Positions 24,964 through 59,009 of a stretch of 64,000 nucleotides of DNA are shown here, in pieces; the first letter of the stretch is position 1, and each line of letters opens with the position of its first letter. Source of the DNA: Anaspis maculata (lineage: Eukaryota > Arthropoda > Insecta > Coleoptera > Scraptiidae). The notes under the pieces were generated by a model. The model worked only from the letters and a program-made list of their open reading frames with translations, was not told where the DNA came from and made no database searches. The stretch lies in assembly GCA_949128115.1 (NCBI GenBank), contig OX421968.1:744001-808000 (forward strand), given 5' to 3'. A program made the translations under genes and the position numbers.

Positions 24964-25085
24964 CTGGAATAAGAAAAACAAAACAAAAACATCGTTAGAA
25001 TTACTGTGTAGGTACATATTATGATCATCTATTATCTATCTGTTCTGAGTAGGGATGGGATTCTGGGGTTCGTGAAGCTGCTCAC

Positions 25086-25805
25086 CTGCTGTAACGTGTT
25101 TTGATCGCGGGGTGTAATTGCATCAGCTCCGATCCCACTGTCAGGACTAGGCAAGTCGACGGTGAGTCCTGCAGCGGTCGCAGCGGCGATAACACCCTTG
25201 GTGTGGTATGACTGACGTACGTAGCGCTCAACGAAGCTGGCGGTGGCATTTCCACTTCCACCACCGCCGCCGACATCTTCGCCGTAGCTTTGTGCCTGCC
25301 GCAATTGACTGGTGTAGACTGGTTCTGGGGTGGCACCGCCAGAAGCTACGGTGGTAAAGTACTCGCGATAGTACGGATCCGAGACGGAAACGGAAAAAGC
25401 GGCAGAGCTAGACGGTCGACCGGCGGAAGTGACATACCCGCTGCCGCCACCTCCCCCAGAACCCACGCTGCTCTGCGTGTACTGCGTCACGTGGTCGCTG
25501 TACGGAATCGGAGAAGGGGAGCCGCTACCGCCGTGGCCACTGCTGCTCATGGCGGCAAATATCTGTGTGGCGTACATTGCCGGTTTGATGCCATCCGAAG
25601 AAATGAACTCGATGGGGCCGGTGTTGGACCCGTCGGCCAGCAGGCTGCTGTGGCTGTGGGTCGAAGTCGGCGTGGCGCTTACCGACCGCGAGCCGTGCTG
25701 GGGCGAGTTCAGTCCTCGGTGGGATTCATCCTTGACGGAGTTCACGTCCACCACCAGGTCGCCGTGGTGTTGATGCTGACCGCCCGCGGAAGACACCAAC
25801 ACAAC
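25086..25805 (-). CDS. grh: grainyhead, large central exon
   Basis: This 720 bp exon (240 codons, phase 0 at both ends) is the largest grh exon in the window. Its sequence is rich in Gly, Ser, His and Gln, with poly-Gly runs. It ends with the strongly conserved Grainyhead stretch that includes KGVIAAATAAGLTVDLPSPD, then SGIGADAITPRDQ. This precedes the DNA-binding domain in insect Grh and is a likely transactivation segment. The acceptor is TTGCAG above 25805 and the donor is CAG|GTGAGC below 25086. GC content is clearly higher than in the surrounding introns, as expected for coding sequence here. Confidence 0.95.
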
Positions 25806-26367
25806 CTGCAACATGTAAAGCAACACCGTTACAGTTACACCGTCACTCACTATAGGTACCTTTGGTATTGCAGCAATGCAGCATCAGCATCCCAATTATG
25901 TACCAGTCTGGTTACATACTTACGCATACAAATGTGTGTACTGAATTGAGAAGTGTCAAATAACAGTCAAATCAAACAGAAAAAACCTTTCTAAATATGT
26001 ACACATAATTACATTAATTACCTACGTATGTATATGTCCAAATAAATCGCATACTTCGAAGTGTTCCCAATAATAACTTTAGATTTATGTGAATAATCGT
26101 TATGATGTTTATCAACGTATCACGCCCAAATGGATTGAAAGTAATGAAGCATGAAGAGTTCAAGAGAAGAACCACTACTATTCGGAAGTACTAACTTGGA
26201 CTCGGAATACGGTTATAAATAATGGTTAATTAACATATTTTGAAAAATTTAAACTGACAAAATTTAAACATGGAAAATTAATGTTCACCGTTTTCACTGG
26301 AAAGCATTGTGATGCACAATAAAACAGGGTGTTTCACTTTTTTTTTCAATATTTCAGGGGATGGTAG
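25806..26367. other. grh intron, no feature recognised
   Basis: AT-rich intron sequence with a CAGGGTGTTTCAC repeat terminus at about 26325. Confidence 0.5.
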
Positions 26368-47484: not shown

Positions 47485-48011
47485 CCTCGAATTCCTCCCA
47501 AACTAGACGACCTAGCTTTCTAATTTTTTCGCTGTTACATAGCTGCCACTCCCAAAGGAGGGCTAGGCTATATTGGATGTCTATATTGCGCCGCCAACAT
47601 AGAGAAAACCGCCCCCGATAAACTTGAAATAACATAATATTGCACTTTCTACCAGACCTGATGCTCTGGTGTTCTCATTTTTTGAATAATACATAGTTGC
47701 CACTTATAAACGTAAGCCAAGAAACATTCCGTCATTGATATGCGCCGCCGACATGAAAAAACTGCTAAAAACCGCCCCCAATCACTTTGAAATGAAAAAC
47801 ATAAACCCGAAGACATAGCGATCTGATTCTTTCGGTATATAAATAGCTGACTAAAAATGGGAAAGGATAGGCCACTTTTGGTTAGTCGCCGCCCCCAGAT
47901 TCCGCCCCCAAACGATAAAAAGTGCAATAAAATGAAAAACATAAACCCGAAGACATAGCGATCTGATTCTTTCGGTATATAAATAGCTGACTAAAAATGG
48001 GAAAGGATAGG
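47485..48011. repeat. left remnant of the ~265 bp tandem array
   Basis: Two copies of ACATAAACCCGAAGACATAGCG ... ATAGCTGACTAAAAATGGGAAAGGATAGG (ending at 47871 and 48011) are 140 bp apart, joined by an internally deleted unit. The second copy ends exactly at the 6 bp target duplication of the Polinton-like element. GCCGCCCCCA words recur. Confidence 0.88.
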
Positions 48012-49152
48012 AGTAGGTAGTGGGATACCTTGGACCAGCCCCTCTCCTTCTCCTTTAAGCCCCGCCCCCTCACTCTGAGGCCACGCCCACCTGTCAGATT
48101 TTGACAGGTGACATTTGACAGCTGTCATCTGTCAGATTTTGACAGCTGTCACATTTGACAGGTGACTTTTGACAGCTGTCACATTTGACAGGTGACGTTT
48201 GACAGCTGTCACATTTGACAGGTGACTTTTGACAGCTGTCACATTTGACAGGTGACGTTTGACAGCTGTCACATTTGACAGGTGACGTTTGACGGCTGTC
48301 ACATTTGACAGGTGACATTTGACAGCTGTCTAACTTGACAGGTGATGGCCGCCATGACAGTGGAGGGAAAGCGGGAAATTTGAATTAGACAGCTGTCTCA
48401 ATTGACAATTGACAGCCGTCAGATGATGGCCGCCATGACGGTTGAGGGAAGAGCGGGAAATTTGAATTTGAAATCTGACGTATGTGATAGGTGACAGCTG
48501 TCAGATTGACATTTGATACCTGTCAGATGATGGACGCCATGACAGTTGAGAAAAGAGCGGGACATTTGAATTTGAAAGGTGACGTACGTGACAGCTGACG
48601 TATGTGGCAGGTGACAGCTGTCAGATTGACATTTGACACCTGTCAGATGATGGCCGCCATGACAGTTGAGAAAAGAGCGGGAAATTTGAAATAGACAGGT
48701 GACAGGTTTTTGACAAATGGTTGATGATGGACGCCATGACAGTTTTCGGAACTGTGCTATCTTCAAGCCTCCGCTAGATAGAGCTGCCTACTACAGGTTT
48801 CTAACGGTGATTTCCTCAAGCTTCCGCTAGATGGAGCCACTGGTATTAGAGGTTTCTAACTGTGATATCCGCAAGCCTCCGATAGATGGAACCACCCGGA
48901 AGTTTGTTGTAAAAGAGCGGGAAATTTGAATTTCAAACAAATTGGTGATTCTGATAGGTACCTACAGCTAACTTGTTCGCCAACGCGGGTTTCTAACTGT
49001 GGTATCCTCAAGCCTCAGCTAGATGGAACCACTTCATATATCTGTCCGTTTGTTGTAAATGAGCGGGAAATTCAAATTCGGTAGGCCATAGATATAGGTG
49101 ACATTTGACATATGCCTAATTCAAATATGACGGGTGACAGATGATGGCCGCC
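48012..49152. repeat. left terminal inverted repeat (1,141 bp)
   Basis: Inverse of 56355..57495, with one visible mismatch near the inner edge (GATGGCCGCC versus GATAGCCGCC). It holds a 30 bp minisatellite, repeated GCGGGAAATTTGAA boxes, ATGGCCGCCATGACAGT palindromic boxes and CTCAAGCCTCCGCTAGATGG repeats. Open frames inside it are by-products of the repeats and occur identically in the right copy. Confidence 0.95.
48141..48350. repeat. 30 bp minisatellite in the left TIR
   Basis: About seven units of GACAGCTGTCACATTTGACA plus GGTGACNTTT, each holding the palindrome GACAGCTGTC with an E-box core CAGCTG. Units start every 30 bp from 48141. The mirror copy is at 57157..57366. Confidence 0.95.
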
Positions 49153-49764
49153 ATGACATTCAGAAAATGAGCGGGCATTTTGAAATAGACAAATGACGTA
49201 GGTGGCAAATGATTGATGATGATCGCCATGACAGTTTTGGAACTGTGCTATCCTCAAGTCTCCGCTAGATAGAGTTGCCTACTACAAGTTCCTGACTGTC
49301 AGATGATGGCCGGCATGACAGTTTAGAGAAAAGCGGGAAATTTGAATTTCAAAACAGAAAGCGAGAAGTTTGAATTTGACTCTCGCTTGATGGGGCAACC
49401 GGTATTACAGATTCCTAACTGTGATACTTACTTTCAAGCCTCCATTAGATTGAACCGTCTAATACGTCTGGCAGTTTGATTCAAATATCTTGGCGCTAAA
49501 TTCAAAGATCCAAACTGCTAAAAATAGCGAGGATGTGTGGACAAGAATTTTGAATAGTGTCAGAATTCAATGATATCAATAATATACTAGAGAAGATTTT
49601 GCCTTTATCTGAATACCTACTTACTAAGGCTTGCGTTATGACAGATTTAAGTTCTATACATCTAAAAACAAACAAAAAACACGTTTATATCACACCCAGA
49701 AATTAGAATATATTTCTCACAAACTAAATAAACACTTATAATGATACATTTTTCATCATAATTG
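49153..49764. other. non-coding inner segment next to the left TIR
   Basis: It continues the TIR-type repeats outside the duplicated region (CTCCGCTAGATAGAG near 49259, AAGCGGGAAATTTGAATT near 49331, CTCGCTTGATGGGGCAACC) and then becomes AT-rich before the stop of the 107 aa gene. It probably includes 3' untranslated sequence. Confidence 0.6.
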
Positions 49765-50088
49765 TCAAATTTTGGCGATATCGATTATTGCGCACAGAGA
49801 TCCGCGAATGGTGATAATTTTCTTCACTTCCAGGTACATTTTGCCTCCGTGATTTGAATTGAAGTCCTCAATTGCAGCGTTATGGAATATTTCGCGATAC
49901 CGTTTTGGTAGGTTGACTAAGAAGTCACCCAAATCTGCTACAACGGTGTCTCCATACCGTGTTGGGTTTCTTGATATTTTGTAGATTTTGTAATGGGTGC
50001 CTATTTCCAAAGTTGATAGTTTAATGAACTCCTTCAAGGCACCAGCGCGGTCTAGTTCCTCGAAATTCATAGTAAATCGAAACTTCAC
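49765..50088 (-). CDS. 107 aa OB-fold-like protein, candidate ssDNA-binding protein
   Basis: This is the last gene of the element. It has a segment LKEFIKLSTLEIGTHYKIYK with ISRNPTRYGDTVVADLGDFL and VNLPKRYREIF. The pattern of an initial Y-x-I strand, T-x-YG and LP-x-R resembles a small OB-fold-like family seen with insect virus-like elements; that resemblance is from memory. A role in binding single-stranded DNA is inference. The start at 50088 gives a short N-terminal MKFRFTMNF, and the second Met (residue 7) is an alternative start. It is separated from the 169 aa gene by 636 bp of non-coding repeat. Confidence 0.65.
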   Translation of the reverse strand: MKFRFTMNFEELDRAGALKEFIKLSTLEIGTHYKIYKISRNPTRYGDTVVADLGDFLVNLPKRYREIFHNAAIEDFNSNHGGKMYLEVKKIITIRGSLCAIIDIAKI

Positions 50089-50724
50089 GATTTTGAAAAA
50101 ACAAAATTAATATTAACGACGGAACTTCACAATGGCTACTGTAGTAGAACTTCTTTCAACCGAACTATTAATACCAGCACTATCTCTGCCTCATTACACA
50201 CAGGACAAAATCGTAATTCTCAATAAACCTGACTAGCTATTTTGTGTCTCTTTTTGTTTGGTGAAAAAGAATTCAAACCTTATCAAAATTTGAAGTAATG
50301 TTTTTCTGTTTCTGCATGTTTTTGTAGGTAGGTAGGTAGGTTATATCTACTGGTGATTTAATTCAAATAAAAAAACGACTGAAATGTTTCGTCAATGCGA
50401 GTTTCTGTGATATCCTCAAGCCGCCACTAGATGGAACCACCTCATATATCTGTCTGTTTGTTGTAAATGAGCGGGAAACTTGACTTCGATAGATAAAGGT
50501 GACATTAAATTCGTGATTCTGCAAGTAGGTACCTACAACTAACTTGTCCACCAATGCGATATTGCAAGGATGTTTTGTTTTGTTGCATTATAATAAAAAA
50601 CGAATAAACTTTTCACATTTTTATTAAAAATTATCATCTATTCAGTTAGGTATTGTAGTTACAAAATAATTATTTATCCTAATATACAGAGTTTACGCTG
50701 TGAAATATGTGCAAAAGACCAACT
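50089..50724. other. non-coding repeat spacer inside the element
   Basis: It contains another block of the TIR-type repeat (TCCTCAAGCCGCCACTAGATGGAACCACC near 50413, TGTAAATGAGCGGGAAACTT near 50462) and a GTAGGTAGGTAGG run at 50327. It is likely the promoter or upstream region of the 107 aa gene. Confidence 0.55.
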
Positions 50725-51234
50725 TTAATTGATAGATTTGGAAAATTTCTCCAAAATATCTAGTAATTTCAGGAGCTCATCATATTTCTCAGAAATTAAA
50801 TTCCATTCACTTTTGACCAGAGAAATTTCTGGATGTAGCCCGACAGAGAAATAAATGTCGTGAAGTTCTTGTTCTTTCCGAAATTTAACTACTTTTCGAC
50901 GTCCACTTCCATCAAAGTCAATATTTATGAATGGTAGGTTTTCAGTTGCTGGTATTGGAACGGCATTAGTGTTGAGAAAACCGTCGATTTTCGTTTTGCA
51001 GCCTGATGTTTCGATATTTTTGAATACTTCCGGTGATATGAGAAGTCTTCCTCTGTTTCTTTCTTCAATGACGACACATGGAACCATTCCAACCAAACAA
51101 GGTACTAATCGCTTCGAACCACTTTTGTTTAGAGGATATTCTGTTGACAAAGCATACAAATGTTGAAGGAACTCCATGATGTTCACTATGCTATGGGTCT
51201 TGACAGAATGATGTTTTTGAAGGTTCTTTTCCAA
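50725..51234 (-). CDS. 169 aa protein of unknown function
   Basis: This ORF lies directly downstream of the capsid-like gene (58 bp gap) on the same strand. It has a hydrophobic-alternating central region (RLVPCLVGMVPCVVIEE, RGRLLISPEVFKNIE) and a Leu/Ile-rich C-terminal helix (YDELLKLLDILEKFSKSIN). I recognise no family. Its place after the capsid-like gene makes a minor capsid or penton-like protein possible, but nothing in the sequence proves it. Met 20 (MEFLQHLYALST) is an alternative start at about 51177. Confidence 0.65.
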   Translation of the reverse strand: MEKNLQKHHSVKTHSIVNIMEFLQHLYALSTEYPLNKSGSKRLVPCLVGMVPCVVIEERNRGRLLISPEVFKNIETSGCKTKIDGFLNTNAVPIPATENLPFINIDFDGSGRRKVVKFRKEQELHDIYFSVGLHPEISLVKSEWNLISEKYDELLKLLDILEKFSKSIN

Positions 51235-51292
51235 TTTATAGGCGATTTTCGCGTTCCAAAGTGTAGGTTTACGCCTTCTCTAGCCGAAACGT

Positions 51293-52534
51293 TTATAGGG
51301 AGACTCTTTTTCGAACGATGCTGGTTAGTGGATTATATTCAATTATTCGATCGTGTATTATCAGACAGTAAGCAGTTGTATCGTTGGGAAAAGCAGCGGA
51401 TGCTTCAAATTCAAGCTTAACATCAACTGGACTTGTTTTTACAACTTCTGACTGCTTTGAACAATCAATTACAATTAAAGGGGCAATATCTTTAAAATTT
51501 TCAAATGATAGAAGTGGATAGGTTACTTCATCGTTATAAAATGATTCTCGGAATTTGTAATATAAATTGTATGGCAAAGCATAGTAATTTTTGGCGAAGT
51601 CAATATTTAAATCATCATACGGGTATGATTTAGAATTGAGAAATAATTTGACATTGCTGATGTTGCAATGATCGAATATGCTAGTGTCTTTTTTCACTGT
51701 ATTATTTCTTCCTGTTTGGAAAGCCAGAATCACATAGCGAGGTTTCTCCATTTGAGTTGAAGTCTTGATACTCCATACTTGTTTTCGAGATGATGGTAGT
51801 ACTGGATATTCAAAAAGCTCCCAACTTCGAAAACCGACTGAAATAATTTTTTCGGTCTTCAAATATTGCATCAAATAAAGTCTCTGATGATCATCAACTC
51901 CAACATACGGAACGTTCCAAGACAATTTTGTTATCTCGATTGTTGCTTTGGGGGGCTCTTCATTTTGTACCAATACAGGTGATACATAACAATTATCCTG
52001 ATTTCTAGATCTCAAAAGTATTAATTCTTGTTTAACGTTTATTATAACTTTCCGATAATCCTCTGCAAAGCCAATCAGATTGGACAGCGGTAAGCAAACA
52101 CTGAAGAAGCCATTTTTCACGATGTCAAGCGAACTACTTTGTGGTCTGCACCATCCATGATGTTGATGTTTGTCATATCCCAGAGAAGAAGACACGAATG
52201 TTTTAAGAGTAGTGGTTATTCCCAGATTTCTTACTCGATCGATTTCTACACCACCGAGTTCGTATCTAATGTCATCGAACAGGAAAGCAAAAGCATTATT
52301 GATCAATTTACAGGAATCCTTGGCTTTAGCACTACCATCTTCATTTAAAAATTTTCCTTCTAAGTATAAAAAACTTTGACTAGGTAATGTGTAAATATCC
52401 TGATGTTGAAGGCTGATGCGTATCTCATCCCCCGGTTGAAATTTATTTGCAGCATAGGGATGATGACTGTGAAACTCAATACCTTCTATTGAATTATCAG
52501 CTGCGGGTGTTTCTTCTAATTCCAACATATCCAT
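51293..52534 (-). CDS. major capsid protein candidate (double jelly-roll-like), 413 aa
   Basis: The protein begins with an acidic stretch and then FHSHHPYAANKFQPGDEIRI, LPSQSFLYLEGKF and NNAFAFLFDDIRYELGGVEI, and ends TTAYCLIIHDRIIEYNPLTS. Related proteins recur in insect genomes as uncharacterised ORFs next to the same integrase, ATPase and protease genes. Beta-strand-rich alternation throughout and its location between protease and ATPase-side genes fit a double jelly-roll major capsid protein. The length is short compared with classical Polinton capsids (about 500-700 aa). Assignment is inference from context and pattern, not from a motif. Confidence 0.62.
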   Translation of the reverse strand: MDMLELEETPAADNSIEGIEFHSHHPYAANKFQPGDEIRISLQHQDIYTLPSQSFLYLEGKFLNEDGSAKAKDSCKLINNAFAFLFDDIRYELGGVEIDRVRNLGITTTLKTFVSSSLGYDKHQHHGWCRPQSSSLDIVKNGFFSVCLPLSNLIGFAEDYRKVIINVKQELILLRSRNQDNCYVSPVLVQNEEPPKATIEITKLSWNVPYVGVDDHQRLYLMQYLKTEKIISVGFRSWELFEYPVLPSSRKQVWSIKTSTQMEKPRYVILAFQTGRNNTVKKDTSIFDHCNISNVKLFLNSKSYPYDDLNIDFAKNYYALPYNLYYKFRESFYNDEVTYPLLSFENFKDIAPLIVIDCSKQSEVVKTSPVDVKLEFEASAAFPNDTTAYCLIIHDRIIEYNPLTSIVRKRVSL

Positions 52535-52689
52535 CGTGATGTTACCATGGAATTTTATAACCCATCAACTGCAAAAATTTTATATTTTTTGCTGTAAGCC
52601 TTGTGTTAGGCTTGCTTGTGGTATTTAGACTGTGCTTTTTCTTAGATATACATCGTGATTTATATACTTTTCCAAAATTCAAACCCATG
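52535..52689. other. AT-rich spacer between capsid-like and protease genes
   Basis: 155 bp non-coding, T-rich on the plus strand. It may contain the capsid gene promoter. Confidence 0.5.
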
Positions 52690-53145
52690 TTAGCAGATGT
52701 AACCTAGTAAAAATAATAAGCACAGTTGTCCGCAGATGTACGTATTGGGTTCTTGATATTTAGTCCTATTTACAGTGATGTTAAATCCTTTCATATATCG
52801 ACTCAAACTTCTTGGAGGCTTTTTGTTCCCTAAGCTGTTGAAAAACTTCACACTGTTGCCAACTTTTTTGTAACAAACCCAATGAGTACCACTTCTTCTG
52901 ATAGTATCTAAGTTCAAAATTGCAAATTCGATTTTCTTAGGCTTTTTGGGGAGTGTATCGCTCATAAAAACACCTCTGAAATGTGGTATTTTGTATTTCT
53001 TTGCTAGATAAGCCAAATCTACATTTGACAATTTTCTTTTCGGTAAAAGAGATAAAAAATTGTCTGCACTAATGGATAAACCAGATCCAAACCGCGGTGT
53101 TGGTATAATACGCTTTTTTCGTGAGCCTCTCGAAGGTTTTACCAT
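52690..53145 (-). CDS. adenain-type (Ulp1-like) cysteine protease, 151 aa
   Basis: The catalytic pattern of adenoviral and Polinton maturation proteases is visible: His88 in GTHWVCY, Asn103 in FFNSLG at the position usually held by Asp, Gln131 in YQEPNTYICGQ and Cys138 in the same motif. The N-terminal 30 residues are basic (KPSRGSRKKRIIPTPRFGSG). In related viruses this enzyme cleaves capsid and core precursors during virion maturation. The length is near the lower end for the family. The replacement of the usual Asp by Asn is tolerated in some members. A 48 bp gap separates it from the integrase. Confidence 0.87.
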   Translation of the reverse strand: MVKPSRGSRKKRIIPTPRFGSGLSISADNFLSLLPKRKLSNVDLAYLAKKYKIPHFRGVFMSDTLPKKPKKIEFAILNLDTIRRSGTHWVCYKKVGNSVKFFNSLGNKKPPRSLSRYMKGFNITVNRTKYQEPNTYICGQLCLLFLLGYIC

Positions 53146-53193
53146 GACTAGGACATAAGCAAGAATGCTGTCGAAATAAAAAACACTTTCTAT

Positions 53194-54126
53194 TTATACT
53201 ATATCATTTTTATTAATCCAACTATTATGCATTGTGTCAAAACCTAACCATTTAACAAGAGCTTTATTTCCTTTCAGCTTCAGAATCTTCTCAACCAGAT
53301 AGTGTTTCGGATACTTGACGTGTTGAATTTCTTCCTTGTAGAAACCACCAGCTATATCTTTCCCAAGTGAATCTTTTAAAAGATACGTTACAGGATCTGT
53401 TCTTTTAATTTTTCTGATCTTGAATATTTCAGTACTCCATGAAGGAGTATATCCCTTAGCAAATAACGCTTTGTATTTGGAAATTCTCACATGATCTCCA
53501 ACTTTATGATTCGGAAGAACTTTTGGAGGTGTATCATCATCTTTGTAAACATATTTCAACAGATATTTCTCAATACGTTTCCCTTTAACTGAAATTGGAC
53601 TTCTCCCAATAGTTCTATGTTTAGTTTCATTATACTTTGATACCAATGATTCTATGATTGTATACCATTTATAGTTTCCTTGTAGACTGAACTGCTTCCA
53701 AAGAGCGTTTTTCAGCGTTCTGTTGAATCGTTCAACGATAGAGGCCTTGAGAGTGCTATATGTTGAGTAGTGGTTGATTTTGCATCTTTTTGTGATAGAT
53801 TTGAATAATTTGTTGTAAAATTCAGTTCCATCATCAGTTTGTAGATTTTTAGGCGCTCTTTTTCCTAGTAAGATGTTTTCAAACGCGGTTGCAACCTCTG
53901 CAGCAGATTTTTGTCTCAGTGGTCGTACCCAGGCGTACTTTGAAAAGCAATCAATCACACAGAGTAAATAGGAATATCCTCTATTTTTTTCAGCATAAAG
54001 CTTCAAGTCAATAAGATCGGCTTGCCACAAATCATCTATGCCTTTTAGTATAACTCGTCTCCTTTTGAAATTTTTTCTGGCTGGTTTATGGATTTCATCC
54101 ACAATTTGCTTTTTCACAGTTGACAT
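53194..54126 (-). CDS. retroviral-type integrase (rve) with C-terminal chromodomain, 310 aa
   Basis: The DDE triad is visible as Asp37 in LWQADLIDL, Asp98 in LQTDDGTEF and Glu132 in ASIVERFNRTLK, in the order and approximate spacing of Polinton integrases. The C-terminal 40 residues (YLVEKILKLKGNKALVKWLG, then NSWINKNDIV) form a chromodomain, which can steer integration to marked chromatin. No N-terminal HHCC zinc finger precedes the core; the protein starts with a basic segment (KPARKNFKRRRVILKG), as in the shorter integrases annotated elsewhere as F54H12.3-like. It should catalyse the strand transfer that produced the 6 bp duplication. Confidence 0.93.
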   Translation of the reverse strand: MSTVKKQIVDEIHKPARKNFKRRRVILKGIDDLWQADLIDLKLYAEKNRGYSYLLCVIDCFSKYAWVRPLRQKSAAEVATAFENILLGKRAPKNLQTDDGTEFYNKLFKSITKRCKINHYSTYSTLKASIVERFNRTLKNALWKQFSLQGNYKWYTIIESLVSKYNETKHRTIGRSPISVKGKRIEKYLLKYVYKDDDTPPKVLPNHKVGDHVRISKYKALFAKGYTPSWSTEIFKIRKIKRTDPVTYLLKDSLGKDIAGGFYKEEIQHVKYPKHYLVEKILKLKGNKALVKWLGFDTMHNSWINKNDIV

Positions 54127-54176
54127 TGTTCTTGGAGCACATCTAGAGACAGACTAATTAAAAATACTCCTGCATT

Positions 54177-55373
54177 TTATAAAATAATCCCCGATTCCCT
54201 CAAGCTCCTCTCAATACGTATAATTTCTTGTGAGTGGTCAGATGTTTTATCATAGAATAAGGTTTCTAGCTGTTCAACCAATTTATTTGCATTTATTTCT
54301 TTCACACCTCCACCAGTTTTACTTTTAGCTTTGTTTCGAGATATAGACAATAAAGGTTCAATAACCGTTTTGTACTTTGGATTTCTCTTCACTTTTTCAC
54401 AAATATTTTCGGTCGAACTATAACGTTTTCGAAGCGCATTGGTCGTTTTTAAAATCGTACAATATAATTTTTTATCTGCTTCTTGAATCACTCCCAAATT
54501 AGGATCTTTCTTGAAGATCAGTTCAGCCAGGCCTGGAGTAATGTCGTAAGTTCGATCATCCACTTCTAGCTGATTTTCTTTGAAATTTATAACAGAATCT
54601 CCAAGAATATAACGTCTGTCTGAATATCTAACGCCCGACGTTAAATCCATTGTACTGCAATCACCGCCACTTTTGAGTTTGGAGAGGTAATAGGAAACAT
54701 CTAAATGTTGTTTGCGCGTGTTAGCTGCTGACGACGGTTGCTCTATGTGTGTTTTCTTCTCTTCTCCTTCTCTACTTTGACTATTCGATTGTAATTCATT
54801 TTCATTCAATTTTGAACTTGATGTGGTAGATGTCGTTAGGTTTGCTGAGTTATACTTCATATTGCGGTAATGTACAACATCCCGAGGTCGCGTCAATTTG
54901 GGTTGATTCTCCAATGTGAAGATTGTTTCCTGACTTGGTGTGGTAAAAGCTGATGCTTTCGAGGATTCTTCTTTCTCTTCTTTATCTTCTCTTTGGGGCT
55001 GACATTTAGTTTCGGAAATAGAAACTGATTCACGGTCCGATGTGGTATGTGTTGGTTTTAGTGATTTATTTTTTATATTTCTGAGATGTACAACGTTCCG
55101 AGGTCGCTTTAATGTTTTCTTGTGTTGTTCTTTGCTTGTTGAAGACGTGCATTTGGAAATTATAGGTGGTAGTGCTGATATTGATTTTTGACTATGATTA
55201 GTAGTGCTTCCCAAAATTTTGCTTAGCGGTTCTGTTATTGGTCTGTATTTCATTTTCAAAAATTCCTCATCATCTTCTCGTTTTCTTTTGATTAAATTAC
55301 ATTTTTCTCTTATAATATTTCTAGTGTGAATAATGTTCTGTTGTAAGTCGAGGGAAGTACTTTCCCTTTGCAT
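54177..55373 (-). CDS. 398 aa basic protein with DUF8207-like C-terminal domain
   Basis: The N-terminal ~230 residues are low-complexity, rich in Ser, Thr, Lys and Glu, and contain three copies of a short basic motif: RNIIREKCNL, HLRNIKNKSL and HYRNMKYNS, the latter two after RPR(N/D)VV. The C-terminal ~160 residues carry GVRYSDRRYILGDSVINFKE, LEVDDRTYDITPGLAELIFK and a basic tail. That block matches my memory of the DUF8207 family found in insect virus-like elements. The function is unknown; a nucleic-acid-binding core or terminal-protein-like role is conceivable but unproven. It starts 33 bp after the ATPase stop. Confidence 0.72.
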   Translation of the reverse strand: MQRESTSLDLQQNIIHTRNIIREKCNLIKRKREDDEEFLKMKYRPITEPLSKILGSTTNHSQKSISALPPIISKCTSSTSKEQHKKTLKRPRNVVHLRNIKNKSLKPTHTTSDRESVSISETKCQPQREDKEEKEESSKASAFTTPSQETIFTLENQPKLTRPRDVVHYRNMKYNSANLTTSTTSSSKLNENELQSNSQSREGEEKKTHIEQPSSAANTRKQHLDVSYYLSKLKSGGDCSTMDLTSGVRYSDRRYILGDSVINFKENQLEVDDRTYDITPGLAELIFKKDPNLGVIQEADKKLYCTILKTTNALRKRYSSTENICEKVKRNPKYKTVIEPLLSISRNKAKSKTGGGVKEINANKLVEQLETLFYDKTSDHSQEIIRIERSLRESGIIL

Positions 55374-55406
55374 GACTGAAATAACACTGAGGTGTTTGCT
55401 GAAATG

Positions 55407-56096
55407 TTACAGTATTATAAATACGTCAAAGCCCTTCCTGTAGCGACCATTCTTAGGCTCACGATCTTTATCAATAACCAAAAATCCATATTTATAATCA
55501 TTCCAACAGAGCGCACATACTTCTTGGAAGGTTTTAAAAGACATGTCCGAATTAATATGGTCGTCGTATATCTTTCTCAAATTCATATTATCTTGTTTGA
55601 ATAATACCAGTAGGTTTGCGTTATCTCGAATTAAATGTTTTGGAATTCTACTATAACTCTGACACAAGTAAAAACTGTCAATTCCATTATGACGTCCCAT
55701 GCAAAAATATGATCTGACTGCATGTTGCTTATCACATGCTATATCATCAAATATGAAAATAGAATTGGATAAAGCGTCATTCGGTGGTGGTATTTCATCA
55801 TTGTTACCATAAGTAAAGAATTGAATTTCCTTAATCGGCGAAAGGATATCTGCAAGCTGCAGATATTTGAATTGATGTAATGATTTACTAAATACGTACA
55901 GATTCTCAAATTTCAATCCATTTTTGTCGTAAATCAGACTCAACATCAAATTTGTTTTTCCACAGTTCGATGGACCGCAAATTAAGCATCTGACGTTTGT
56001 TGGCAACAAAGATCCATGTTTAGATGAATCAGATACATAACTAGAATTATGAATAGCATTAATGCATATAGTAGCATGTTGCTTGATCAAACGCAT
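55407..56096 (-). CDS. FtsK/HerA-like DNA-packaging ATPase, 229 aa
   Basis: Walker A is GPSNCGKT at residues 41-48 and Walker B is SIFIFDDI at about 112-119. The conserved downstream stretch QSYSRIPKHLIRDNANLLVL is typical of Polinton, adintovirus and virophage packaging ATPases. I chose Met at 56096 (MRLIKQHATI) because the open frame further upstream to 56366 runs through a 20 bp tandem repeat and has no family resemblance. The protein should pump genome DNA into preformed capsids. It is the first gene after the right TIR. Confidence 0.9.
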   Translation of the reverse strand: MRLIKQHATICINAIHNSSYVSDSSKHGSLLPTNVRCLICGPSNCGKTNLMLSLIYDKNGLKFENLYVFSKSLHQFKYLQLADILSPIKEIQFFTYGNNDEIPPPNDALSNSIFIFDDIACDKQHAVRSYFCMGRHNGIDSFYLCQSYSRIPKHLIRDNANLLVLFKQDNMNLRKIYDDHINSDMSFKTFQEVCALCWNDYKYGFLVIDKDREPKNGRYRKGFDVFIIL

Positions 56097-56204
56097 CTTG
56101 ACAACTGTCTTGAAGAAGGAAAACTGTTTTAGATATAATAATAAATATAATCTCGTATTAGTCATTAGTTCATGGGTGGAGTAGAGTAAAACGTAGGTAT
56201 GTAT

Positions 56205-56354
56205 AAGCAGCATCCCACTGTCCCATTGTGTGTCCCACTGTCCCATTTTGTGTCCCACTGTCCCACTTTGTGTCCCACTGTCCCATTTTGTGTCTGACTG
56301 TCTAATTTTGTGTCCAATGTAATAGTATAAGCAACGTCCCATTGTCCCATTTTG
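56205..56354. repeat. 20 bp tandem repeat upstream of the ATPase gene
   Basis: About six units of TGTCCCACTGTCCCATTTTG with few changes, directly abutting the inner end of the right TIR. It is unique to this side of the element. Confidence 0.92.
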
Positions 56355-57495
56355 GGCGGCTATCATCTGTCACCCGTCATATTTGAATTAGGCATATGTC
56401 AAATGTCACCTATATCTATGGCCTACCGAATTTGAATTTCCCGCTCATTTACAACAAACGGACAGATATATGAAGTGGTTCCATCTAGCTGAGGCTTGAG
56501 GATACCACAGTTAGAAACCCGCGTTGGCGAACAAGTTAGCTGTAGGTACCTATCAGAATCACCAATTTGTTTGAAATTCAAATTTCCCGCTCTTTTACAA
56601 CAAACTTCCGGGTGGTTCCATCTATCGGAGGCTTGCGGATATCACAGTTAGAAACCTCTAATACCAGTGGCTCCATCTAGCGGAAGCTTGAGGAAATCAC
56701 CGTTAGAAACCTGTAGTAGGCAGCTCTATCTAGCGGAGGCTTGAAGATAGCACAGTTCCGAAAACTGTCATGGCGTCCATCATCAACCATTTGTCAAAAA
56801 CCTGTCACCTGTCTATTTCAAATTTCCCGCTCTTTTCTCAACTGTCATGGCGGCCATCATCTGACAGGTGTCAAATGTCAATCTGACAGCTGTCACCTGC
56901 CACATACGTCAGCTGTCACGTACGTCACCTTTCAAATTCAAATGTCCCGCTCTTTTCTCAACTGTCATGGCGTCCATCATCTGACAGGTATCAAATGTCA
57001 ATCTGACAGCTGTCACCTATCACATACGTCAGATTTCAAATTCAAATTTCCCGCTCTTCCCTCAACCGTCATGGCGGCCATCATCTGACGGCTGTCAATT
57101 GTCAATTGAGACAGCTGTCTAATTCAAATTTCCCGCTTTCCCTCCACTGTCATGGCGGCCATCACCTGTCAAGTTAGACAGCTGTCAAATGTCACCTGTC
57201 AAATGTGACAGCCGTCAAACGTCACCTGTCAAATGTGACAGCTGTCAAACGTCACCTGTCAAATGTGACAGCTGTCAAAAGTCACCTGTCAAATGTGACA
57301 GCTGTCAAACGTCACCTGTCAAATGTGACAGCTGTCAAAAGTCACCTGTCAAATGTGACAGCTGTCAAAATCTGACAGATGACAGCTGTCAAATGTCACC
57401 TGTCAAAATCTGACAGGTGGGCGTGGCCTCAGAGTGAGGGGGCGGGGCTTAAAGGAGAAGGAGAGGGGCTGGTCCAAGGTATCCCACTACCTACT
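56355..57495. repeat. right terminal inverted repeat (1,141 bp)
   Basis: Mirror of 48012..49152. It lies upstream of the whole gene cluster, so its TTTCCCGC and GACAGCTGTC boxes are candidates for promoter or replication control. Confidence 0.95.
57157..57366. repeat. 30 bp minisatellite in the right TIR
   Basis: Mirror of the GACAGCTGTC array in the left TIR, with the same unit order. Confidence 0.95.
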
Positions 57496-58600
57496 GATAG
57501 GCTACTTTTGGTTAGTCGCCGCCCCCAGAGTCCGCCCCCAAAAGAAAAAAAGTGCAACTTTCAACAATTTCCACTGATTTAGCTGATACTGTTACCTCGA
57601 ACATTTAGAAACTCTTGACTCAAACTGTGCAAGAATTTCTTTGCCAAACTCTGCCGCTCCCACACGCCGCCCCCAAAGTGAGAGATGAATGTAAAACATG
57701 AACCTGAAGACATAGCGATCTAATTCTTTCACTATATTGATAGCTGACTGAAATTGGAAAAATATAGGCCACTTTTATTCAGCCGCCGCCTCCAGCTGCC
57801 GCCTCCAAACAAACAAAAAATGCAACTTTCACAATTTTCACTGATTGTCATATTTCCCTCACATTTAGAAACTCCCAACTCAAACTGTGCAACAGTTACT
57901 TTGCCGAATGCTGCCGCCCCCACACGCTGCCCTCAAAGTGAGAGATGAATGAAAAACATAAACCCGAAGACATAACGATCTAATTCTTTCGCTATATGGA
58001 TAGCTAACTAAAAATGGGAAAGGATAGGCTACCTTTGACATGGCGCCGCCTCCAACTTCCACCCCCAAAAGAGAAAAAGTGCAACTTTCAATAATTTCCA
58101 CTGAATTACATTTTAATGTTACCTCAAACATTCAGAAACTCTCAACTCAAACTGTGAAAGAATTTCTTTGCCAAACTCTGCCGCTCCCACACGCCGCCCC
58201 CAAAGTAAGAGATGAATGTAAAACATAACCCTGAAGACATAGCGATTAAATTGTTCCGCTATATAGATAGCTGACTAAAAATGGGAAGATAGGCCACTTT
58301 TGATTAGTCGCCGCCTCCAGCTCCCGCCCCCAAACAAAAAAATGCAACTTTTACAATTTCATTGATTGTCATATTTCCTTAAACATTCAGAAACTCTCAA
58401 CTCAAACTGTGCAACAGTTACTTTGCAGAATGCTGCCACCCCCACACGCTGCCCTCAAAGTAAGAGATAAATGGAAAACATGAACCCGAAGACATAGCGA
58501 TCCAATTCTTTTGCTATATGGATAGCCGACTAATAATGGGAAAGAATAGACTACTGTTGATTAGTCGCCGCTCCCAGCTCCCGCCCTCAAACAAAAAAAT
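57496..58600. repeat. ~265 bp tandem array, right part
   Basis: Four to five imperfect units, each containing TTAGTCGCCGCCCCCAG-like, GTGCAACTTTCA, TCAAACTGTGCAA, CACACGCCGCCCCCAAAGTG and GAAGACATAGCGATCTAATTC blocks and ending ATAGCTGACTAAAAATGGGA. Unit junctions lie near 57730, 58000, 58266 and 58521. An unoccupied equivalent of the Polinton insertion site (GGGAAAGGATAGGCTACCTT) is at 58015. Confidence 0.88.
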
Positions 58601-59009
58601 ATATTGATGAGTAAAAGAATTTCCATTCAAATCTATTTCATTGGCAAGTACCCCATTCTGATAACACAATATCACAATGAGTTTCGAGTGAAGAAAGTGG
58701 GCAAGGAATGGTGTTTCTCCTTCAACCAAATTTCTTTACGTTCACAATATGCCTCTTTGAGAAAATGCGCTACTGAGACTCACGCACGTGAAGGCATACT
58801 CACTTGTTTTTTATTCGCTCCAAAAATGTATTTTTTGACATGGGTGTACGGTCCTGGAATTTTTTCCTACCTGCTACGGCTTTTTATGGAGTATCAGTGG
58901 GGGAATGCAACACAAAAATTTCAATCGATAATACCAAAGTGTTGCAAAAATATTGCATTTAGAAAATAGTGACTAAATGTACAAAGCACCCTGTATTTTC
59001 GTGACAAAT
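58601..59009. other. intron, no feature recognised
   Basis: An open frame of 121 codons (58604-58969, +) shows no recognised domain. Repeat-like CACCCTGTATTTT occurs near 58988. Confidence 0.4.

What the first reader, a model, noticed from the sequence alone, without database searches (positions are those of the whole stretch)
48012..57495. Intact, recently inserted Polinton-like element with perfect 6 bp target duplication
The ends AGTAGGTAGT...ACTACCTACT, the GATAGG duplication at both sides, and 1,141 bp TIRs with only one mismatch and no indel that I can see define exact boundaries. The seven genes are uninterrupted. Such a clean virus-like element is rare and may be active. The target can be reconstructed by eye as GGGAAAGGATAGG|CTACTTTTGG.
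Basis: partly seen in the sequence, partly recalled or inferred. Interest (0 to 1): 0.92.

Follow-up and report, generated by a model that had tools for sequence, protein, structure and literature searches.

The report
Capsid half of a split Polinton
A 9.5-kb virus-like element in what is probably an insect genome carries capsid and integrase genes but no DNA polymerase, while the polymerase sits alone on other elements with the same ends, so the two are likely halves of one mobile virus that would have to help each other to multiply.

Summary
"Intact Polinton" is only half right. The element has integrase, C5-type protease, packaging ATPase and a double-jelly-roll capsid protein, but no DNA polymerase. 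Nor is it rare: 32 convergent pairs of its 30-nt termini lie in the same genome. By capped match lists, 19 carry integrase without polymerase, 3 carry a PF03175 polymerase without integrase or capsid gene, 10 carry neither, none both. Exact 6-bp duplications flank 11 of 11 pairs examined (10 independent sites), including all three polymerase elements and a gene-poor one, so elements without integrase were inserted in trans. A sister family (F) keeps everything on one element but has different termini. Termini, the small gene P101 and polymerase differ together between the families (26-30% of nucleotides), while capsid proteins are 98-100% identical. I read the window element as the capsid/integrase half of a split Polinton whose polymerase likely comes from the polymerase-only elements. 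Replication, packaging and present activity are inferred. A satellite of F is the main rival.

The parts
48006..48011 (.). target-site duplication GATAGG, left copy
48012..49152 (.). left terminal inverted repeat, 1,141 nt, with a roughly 30-bp tandem array (about 48137-48346)
49765..50070 (-). P101: 101-aa ORF of unknown function; a 36-nt P101 marker occurs 80 times in the genome and is identical in 43; it also lies in 2 of 3 polymerase-type pairs and in gene-poor elements
   Evidence: no Pfam match, no PDB match better than E 0.5
50725..51177 (-). P150: 150-aa ORF, no convincing domain hit; by size and place next to the capsid gene a candidate minor capsid protein (inferred; compare ORF8 of Sf Mavericks, PMC5803895 passages)
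51293..52534 (-). major capsid protein, double jelly roll (PF21738, E 1.1e-112; AlphaFold2 pLDDT 86; Foldseek to iridovirus, PBCV-1, Sputnik and mavirus capsid proteins)
52690..53145 (-). adenain-type C5 cysteine protease (E 0.0016, below Pfam's cut-off)
53194..54126 (-). rve integrase (E 1.3e-10) with candidate residues D37, D98, E132 (motifs recalled) and a weak chromodomain
54177..55373 (-). P398: 398-aa ORF, no domain hit; its C-terminal part is 26-34% alike to the neighbour of integrase in other Polinton subfamilies here
55407..56366 (-). A32/FtsK-like packaging ATPase with Walker A GPSNCGKT; the first about 55 codons are mostly minisatellite, so the real start is probably further in
56213..56312 (.). 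20-bp minisatellite at the point where the polymerase lies in complete relatives; similarity to family F begins at 56202, directly inside it
56355..57495 (.). right terminal inverted repeat, 1,141 nt
57496..57501 (.). target-site duplication GATAGG, right copy
47859..47885 (+). unfilled paralogous copy of the target (26 of 27 bases)

Best explanation
The window element (type A) carries the integrase, protease, packaging ATPase and capsid genes of a Polinton but no DNA polymerase, and it is likely replicated in trans by the protein-primed polymerase that lies alone on separate elements with the same ends (type B), so that A and B are likely two halves of one split genome. Shown: the gene content of the window element and of one B element read through, the shared termini, the lack of any A-terminus pair in which both modules were found, and the same kind of 6-bp target duplication on A, on B and on a gene-poor element, which means that elements without an integrase were inserted in trans. 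Inferred: that B's polymerase primes on these termini, that A's capsid and ATPase package A, B and the gene-poor elements, and that A's integrase inserts them. Inferred origin: loss of the polymerase in A and of the capsid block in B; in the window and in the B element read, the break lies beside a related minisatellite.
For: Partition: 32 end pairs = 19 integrase only, 3 polymerase only, 10 neither, 0 both (from the lists). A 36-nt polymerase marker (up to 3 mismatches) occurs exactly 3 times, each inside an A-terminus pair. The other two B copies are 99% identical in residues to the C7 copy, and all three have a stop-free 773-aa frame; PF03175 E 5e-40. The C7 copy shares 2,957 nt at 95.4% with the window, P101 included (100% of residues); integrase, protease, capsid and P398 give no match better than E 1, and the significant ATPase matches are to its minisatellite part. 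No capsid match falls in any B pair. TSDs of B: CAGGGT, TTTGTG, CACGTG; of the gene-poor element read inside: TCTATA. Between A/B and the complete family F: termini 73.5%, P101 73.7%, polymerase 70.6% nt identity, but capsid protein 98-100% and integrase 91-100% aa: replication parts differ together while the capsid block is shared, which points to B, not F, as the polymerase that fits A's ends. Polymerase B against F: pN 0.14-0.19, pS 0.65-0.83, dN/dS 0.065-0.149 in the three of four pieces where it could be computed. The minisatellite junction stands on the ATPase side in 14 of 17 non-F loci fetched (the other three pieces do not show it) and in 0 of 3 F loci, so polymerase loss is probably ancestral to type A.
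Against: The two ends of the C7 copy are only 84.5% alike over 763 nt, so it is older or recombined, and the P101 marker is missing from one of the three B pairs. Complete F elements with polymerase frames up to 1,273 aa sit in the same genome and could be the helper; one (C6:73.36 Mb) carries integrase and capsid protein identical in residues to the window's beside an F polymerase. With 3 B among 32, no overlap with 19 A is expected in 6% of random draws. The test 0 of 19 against 6 of 9 gives 2e-4, but copies share descent. Protein lists score only the best candidates (128 of 2,949; 74 of 148; 101 of 282), so absence from them is not proof, and only one B and one 'neither' element were read inside.
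Confidence: 0.5

Rival explanations
1. Type A is a satellite of the complete sister family F: it lost its own polymerase and is likely replicated by F's polymerase, and type B is a side branch without a role.
For: F elements carry polymerase frames up to 1,273 aa and capsid protein 98-100% identical to A. F termini resemble A termini (73.5% over 1,022 nt). One F copy at C6:73.36 Mb holds an A-like integrase and capsid gene.
Against: A's ends match B's (95.4% over 2,957 nt; 97.1% over 1,804 nt), not F's. P101 and polymerase differ between F and A/B to about the same degree as the termini, as if each polymerase were tuned to its own ends. B has spread to three sites with exact duplications.
Confidence: 0.3
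2. A, B and the gene-poor elements are an ordinary swarm of deletion derivatives left over from a complete parent with A termini that is now lost or unsampled, and no lasting division of labour exists.
For: Ten of 32 pairs have neither marker; elements with P101 at both ends and capsid-gene fragments are common. Exchange of ends between types is frequent.
Against: 12 of 19 A pairs keep full-length stop-free integrase and capsid frames. The minisatellite junction is shared by 14 of 17 non-F loci fetched, so A has spread many times since losing polymerase. No complete parent with these termini was found among 32 pairs.
Confidence: 0.17
3. The pattern is an assembly artefact.
For: Long near-identical repeats can confuse assembly; one insertion (C5:27.87 / C6:0.905 Mb) does appear twice with identical flanks, as a segmental or assembly duplicate.
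Against: 10 independent sites with an exact 6-bp duplication each, in an assembly of 758 Mb in 50 contigs.
Confidence: 0.03

Closest known systems
Insect Mavericks/Polintons (Sf Maverick 1 and 2, PMC5803895, passages read)
   Same: integrase of 310 aa, A32-like ATPase, adenain-like protease, a 404-aa ORF7 close in size to the 413-aa capsid protein, and a 158-aa ORF8 close in size to P150
   Different: Sf Mavericks carry a POLB of about 1,160 aa and a VP1/PLA2-like CAP on the same element; neither was found in the window element
Vertebrate Mavericks (PMC8097293, passages read)
   Same: 6-bp target duplications, terminal inverted repeats, end motif close to (AGT)2, purifying selection
   Different: there ppolb is one of eight core genes and intact elements have no introns; here the polymerase is on other elements and shows intron-like stretches
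Bidnaviridae (PMC11071308 and PMC5680193, passages read)
   Same: a Polinton-derived protein-primed polymerase in an insect virus, in a family listed with two segments
   Different: ssDNA viruses of parvovirus ancestry; that they lack a double-jelly-roll capsid is recalled
Virophages and polinton-like viruses (PMC11071308, abstract, one section and passages read)
   Same: double-jelly-roll capsid proteins and, for virophages and some PLVs, dependence on another replicon (giant viruses)
   Different: those described there encode replication proteins of their own; the window element has none

Membership tests
Polinton/Maverick | exact 6-bp target-site duplication | tested here: met
   GATAGG; 11 of 11 pairs examined, 10 independent sites
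Polinton/Maverick | long terminal inverted repeats with (AG)3 or (AGT)2 ends | tested here: inconclusive
   1,141-nt TIR, ends AGTAGG: one letter off (AGT)2
Polinton/Maverick | retrovirus-like rve integrase | tested here: met
   PF00665 E 1.3e-10, above cut-off
Polinton/Maverick | adenain-type protease | tested here: inconclusive
   PF00770 18.6 bits, below the cut-off of 21.3; relatives at 43-49% in other subfamilies here
Polinton/Maverick | A32/FtsK-type packaging ATPase | tested here: met
   PF04665 21.7 bits, E 1.6e-4, just under the cut-off of 22.8; its relative in L042 (49% identical) passes at 4.4e-8; Walker A present
Polinton/Maverick | double-jelly-roll major capsid protein | tested here: met
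Polinton/Maverick | minor (single jelly roll) capsid protein | not tested
   P150 has no convincing domain hit; not folded
Polinton/Maverick | protein-primed DNA polymerase B on the same element | tested here: not met
   no polymerase in the window element; none in the other 18 integrase-bearing pairs by the capped list and the marker search; so the element is a polymerase-less relative, not a complete Polinton
Split-genome (multipartite) element | complementary gene sets on separate replicons with the same termini | tested here: met
   19 / 3 / 0 partition by lists; shared ends
Split-genome (multipartite) element | one part cannot multiply without the other | not testable with these tools
   needs expression and particle data
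Split-genome (multipartite) element | parts are packaged and transmitted together or in separate particles | not testable with these tools
   no virion data

The most novel reading that the evidence does not exclude
This is a bipartite double-jelly-roll dsDNA virus/transposon: its genome is permanently divided into a capsid-integrase segment (the window) and a polymerase segment, joined only by common ends, a common integration mechanism and the shared gene P101. It would be a multipartite Polinton caught in the chromosomes of its host, beside its unsplit sister.
Probability: 0.35. Interest if true: 0.92.

Novelty: new variant of a known kind. Interest (0 to 1): 0.75.

Why it matters
Polintons are seen as self-synthesizing elements that carry polymerase and capsid together and stand near the root of many eukaryotic dsDNA viruses. 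A Polinton divided into a capsid half and a polymerase half, beside its unsplit sister in the same genome, would show genome segmentation of a dsDNA virus lineage in nature and make an old question testable: how an unsegmented virus becomes a multipartite one. The inserted elements that lack an integrase gene also indicate that these integrases work in trans.

Tried and rejected
Dead ends. Capsid relatives in IMG/VR: 3 pattern hits, none confirmed. Phage records: none. P398 and P101 against 5.8 billion proteins: none at E 1e-3. P101 fold: pLDDT 55 without an alignment; Foldseek best E 0.17 (a kinase, a secretion chaperone), taken as meaningless. Other Polinton subfamilies first looked like the missing parents; five of eight long ORFs examined there have a DTDS motif but BLAST against B's polymerase gives at best E 0.006, and none of the ten loci fetched is in the end list; one of them (L050) does hold a stretch 42-52% alike to the first two B polymerase pieces. 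C1:35.908 Mb has the same kind of ends as the C7 copy of B and nearly the same length, but the 401-nt piece read matches only the minisatellite, so it was not counted as B.

Rejected: assembly artefact (10 independent duplications); plain autonomous Polinton (no polymerase); unique insertion (32 pairs). Not in print as far as searched: listings seen only (two returned no paper), none describing a split Polinton; PMC5680193 (passages) tables no dsDNA family among multipartite viruses.

Not obtained: integrase-marker, F-terminus and PF03175 searches of the genome; further letters from the genome; dN/dS among A copies.

Full report
Observation. Its 1,141-nt arms (48012-49152, 56355-57495) differ at one base, there is no gap, and GATAGG flanks both ends. 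Seven ORFs lie on the minus strand. The insertion sits in a local repeat array, and a neighbouring copy of the array at 47859-47885 shows the unfilled target, 26 of 27 bases alike to the joined flanks.

Genes. The 413-aa protein is a double-jelly-roll capsid protein: PF21738 E 1.1e-112, 1,250 relatives at E 1e-3 of which the best 120 were listed, the nearest named ones from Rhodnius prolixus (60%) and Cimex lectularius (57%), an AlphaFold2 model with pLDDT 86 from 32 sequences, and Foldseek matches to iridovirus, PBCV-1, Sputnik and mavirus capsid proteins. The other named genes are an rve integrase, a weak C5 protease match and an A32-like ATPase. P398, P150 and P101 have no convincing domain hit. 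By size and neighbourhood the set corresponds to ATP, ORF2, INT, PRO, ORF7 and ORF8 of the Sf Mavericks (PMC5803895, passages), without their POLB and CAP; the longest gap between genes is 654 nt, too short for a polymerase.

Copies. The genome has 758 Mb in 50 contigs. The terminal 30-mer with up to 3 mismatches occurs 73 times, the reversed control 0 times. These make 32 convergent pairs of less than 30 kb (one of them 29 kb long and perhaps not one element) and 9 single ends. Integrase relatives: 128 scored of 2,949 candidates, 28 of them at 91% identity or more, the window included. Of the 32 pairs, 19 hold such an integrase, 3 a polymerase, 10 neither, 0 both. Of the 19, 12 hold full-length (one lacks the first residue) stop-free integrase and capsid frames; the other seven have a partial, broken or missing one.

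Polymerase elements (B). I read one (C7:55543554-55554868) in two pieces. Its right end shares 2,957 nt at 95.4% with the window's left end, with a P101 identical in all residues; in place of the capsid block it has a PF03175 polymerase (5.1e-40) followed by minisatellite. A 36-nt marker of this polymerase occurs exactly three times, in C7, C3:6167443-6179073 and C5:1275310-1283066, all A-terminus pairs, each with a 773-aa stop-free frame. The P101 marker lies in the first two, not in the third. Upstream the polymerase continues in other frames, the same in C7 and C3. Against F in C7, the first change of frame falls at a stretch of about 50 nt that F lacks, with GT and AG at its ends; the second falls at a similar stretch that F also has, read open there.

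Duplications. All 11 pairs examined, of 32, have an exact 6-bp duplication: the window, three B, two pairs without integrase or polymerase in the lists whose insides were not read or only in a 401-nt piece (C6:39.4, C1:35.9), the gene-poor pair C5:27.87 whose inside was read and C6:0.905, and three further A copies (C1:132.9, C2:33.4, C7:2.6). C5:27.87 and C6:0.905 have identical 60-nt flanks in opposite orientation and are one event later duplicated or assembled twice, so there are 10 independent sites. The C3 copy of B sits in a related copy of the same host repeat, at a place a few bases away. B (C7) and the gene-poor element lack an integrase, so they were inserted by an integrase made elsewhere.

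Sister family F. Six loci outside the A pairs have both an integrase at 91-100% (two of them with stops) and a polymerase at 69-70% to B. Three further integrase loci outside the pairs (C7:59.6, C6:10.6, C3:20.3) show no polymerase in that list; one end of each of the first two matches the A repeat at 93.6 and 91.5%. One F end was read: termini 73.5% over 1,022 nt, P101 73.7% nt (67.7% of residues), polymerase 70.6% over 1,758 nt. Capsid protein of the six is 98-100% identical to the window's. So termini, P101 and polymerase differ together while the capsid block is shared: the block was probably exchanged recently, and each polymerase travels with its own ends. Polymerase pieces of B against F give pN 0.14-0.19 against pS 0.65-0.83; dN/dS 0.149, 0.065 and 0.104, the fourth not computable because pS is saturated; P101 0.23. 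This means long purifying selection before the copies now seen.

Junctions. In the window, similarity to F begins at 56202, where the minisatellite ends (95.3% over 107 nt); in B, similarity to F ends just after the polymerase stop, and minisatellite follows. On the ATPase side, 14 of 17 non-F loci fetched carry at least ten minisatellite motifs, the pieces of C9:23.4, C6:8.5 and C6:10.6 do not show them, and 0 of 3 F loci do. Loss of polymerase is therefore probably ancestral to type A, which has spread since.

Age. One mismatch in 1,141 nt gives, with a recalled insect rate of about 3e-9 per site and generation, roughly 0.15 million generations, with wide limits (thousands to most of a million). 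Of 20 further loci compared, 13 gave an arm-to-arm match of more than 200 nt, from 94.4% to 100%; six are at 99.4% or more, each over about 1.0-1.2 kb; the other seven gave none or a short one. The C7 copy of B has arms only 84.5% alike over 763 nt. Waves of insertion, recent ones included, are likely.

Mechanism. Likely steps, all inferred except the duplications: B's polymerase primes on the common ends and copies A, B and gene-poor DNA; A's capsid, protease and ATPase package it; A's (or F's) integrase inserts it with a 6-bp duplication. Whether F is the helper instead is the open question; I put B at 0.5 and F at 0.3.

Statistics. 0 of 19 paired integrase loci have a polymerase beside them against 6 of 9 unpaired ones, 2.2e-4; 0 of 3 against 6 of 6, 0.012; non-overlap of 3 and 19 in 32, 0.058. 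Copies share descent, so these are descriptive.

Literature. None of the listings names a split Polinton (searches returned no paper). PMC11071308 (abstract, one section, passages) suggests the protein-primed polymerase as the ancestral replication protein; PMC8097293 (passages) counts ppolb among eight core genes; PMC6431247 (passages) describes Polintons as encoding it; PMC5680193 (passages) tables multipartite families without a dsDNA one and recounts a foot-and-mouth disease virus that became bipartite in culture.

Noticed in passing
window 25032-25883 (-): 283-aa open frame ending in a stretch that recalls the insect transcription factor Grainyhead (label recalled, no call); the Polinton lies about 22 kb away
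   Followed up: no
window 47791-48067 and 57496-58606: repeat array of about 260- and 140-nt spacing into which the element is inserted
   Followed up: partly
L041-L060 and the integrase list: Further Polinton subfamilies in the same genome (integrase 52-59%), 100 of the 128 scored matches, many scoring identically; five long ORFs (885-1,099 aa) there match Endonuclease_7 and have DTDS but no PF03175 hit at E 0.01, so perhaps a second, very distant polymerase type
   Followed up: partly
G000 C5:27866430-27876630 (inside = L083): Gene-poor element with A termini: P101 at both ends, P150-like remnants, 39-bp minisatellite arrays and a 103-aa frame of unknown origin; the same insertion appears at C6:904977-915176 with identical flanks in opposite orientation
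   Followed up: partly
G000 C2:108744124, C6:2380443, C2:8044698, C3:11896202 and 11898115, C5:39469091, C5:1845084, C4:94599943, C7:55063458: C-terminal capsid-gene fragments, eight of these nine between two opposed P101 copies, as if the element ends had been copied onto both sides
   Followed up: no
window 49765-50070 and 80 places: A 36-nt marker in P101 is identical in 43 of 80 copies, across elements whose other genes differ or are missing
   Followed up: partly
G000 C6:73.360-73.374 Mb: Chimera: F-type polymerase with integrase, capsid protein and P101 marker identical to the window's, and a right end 76.6% like A over 726 nt
   Followed up: partly
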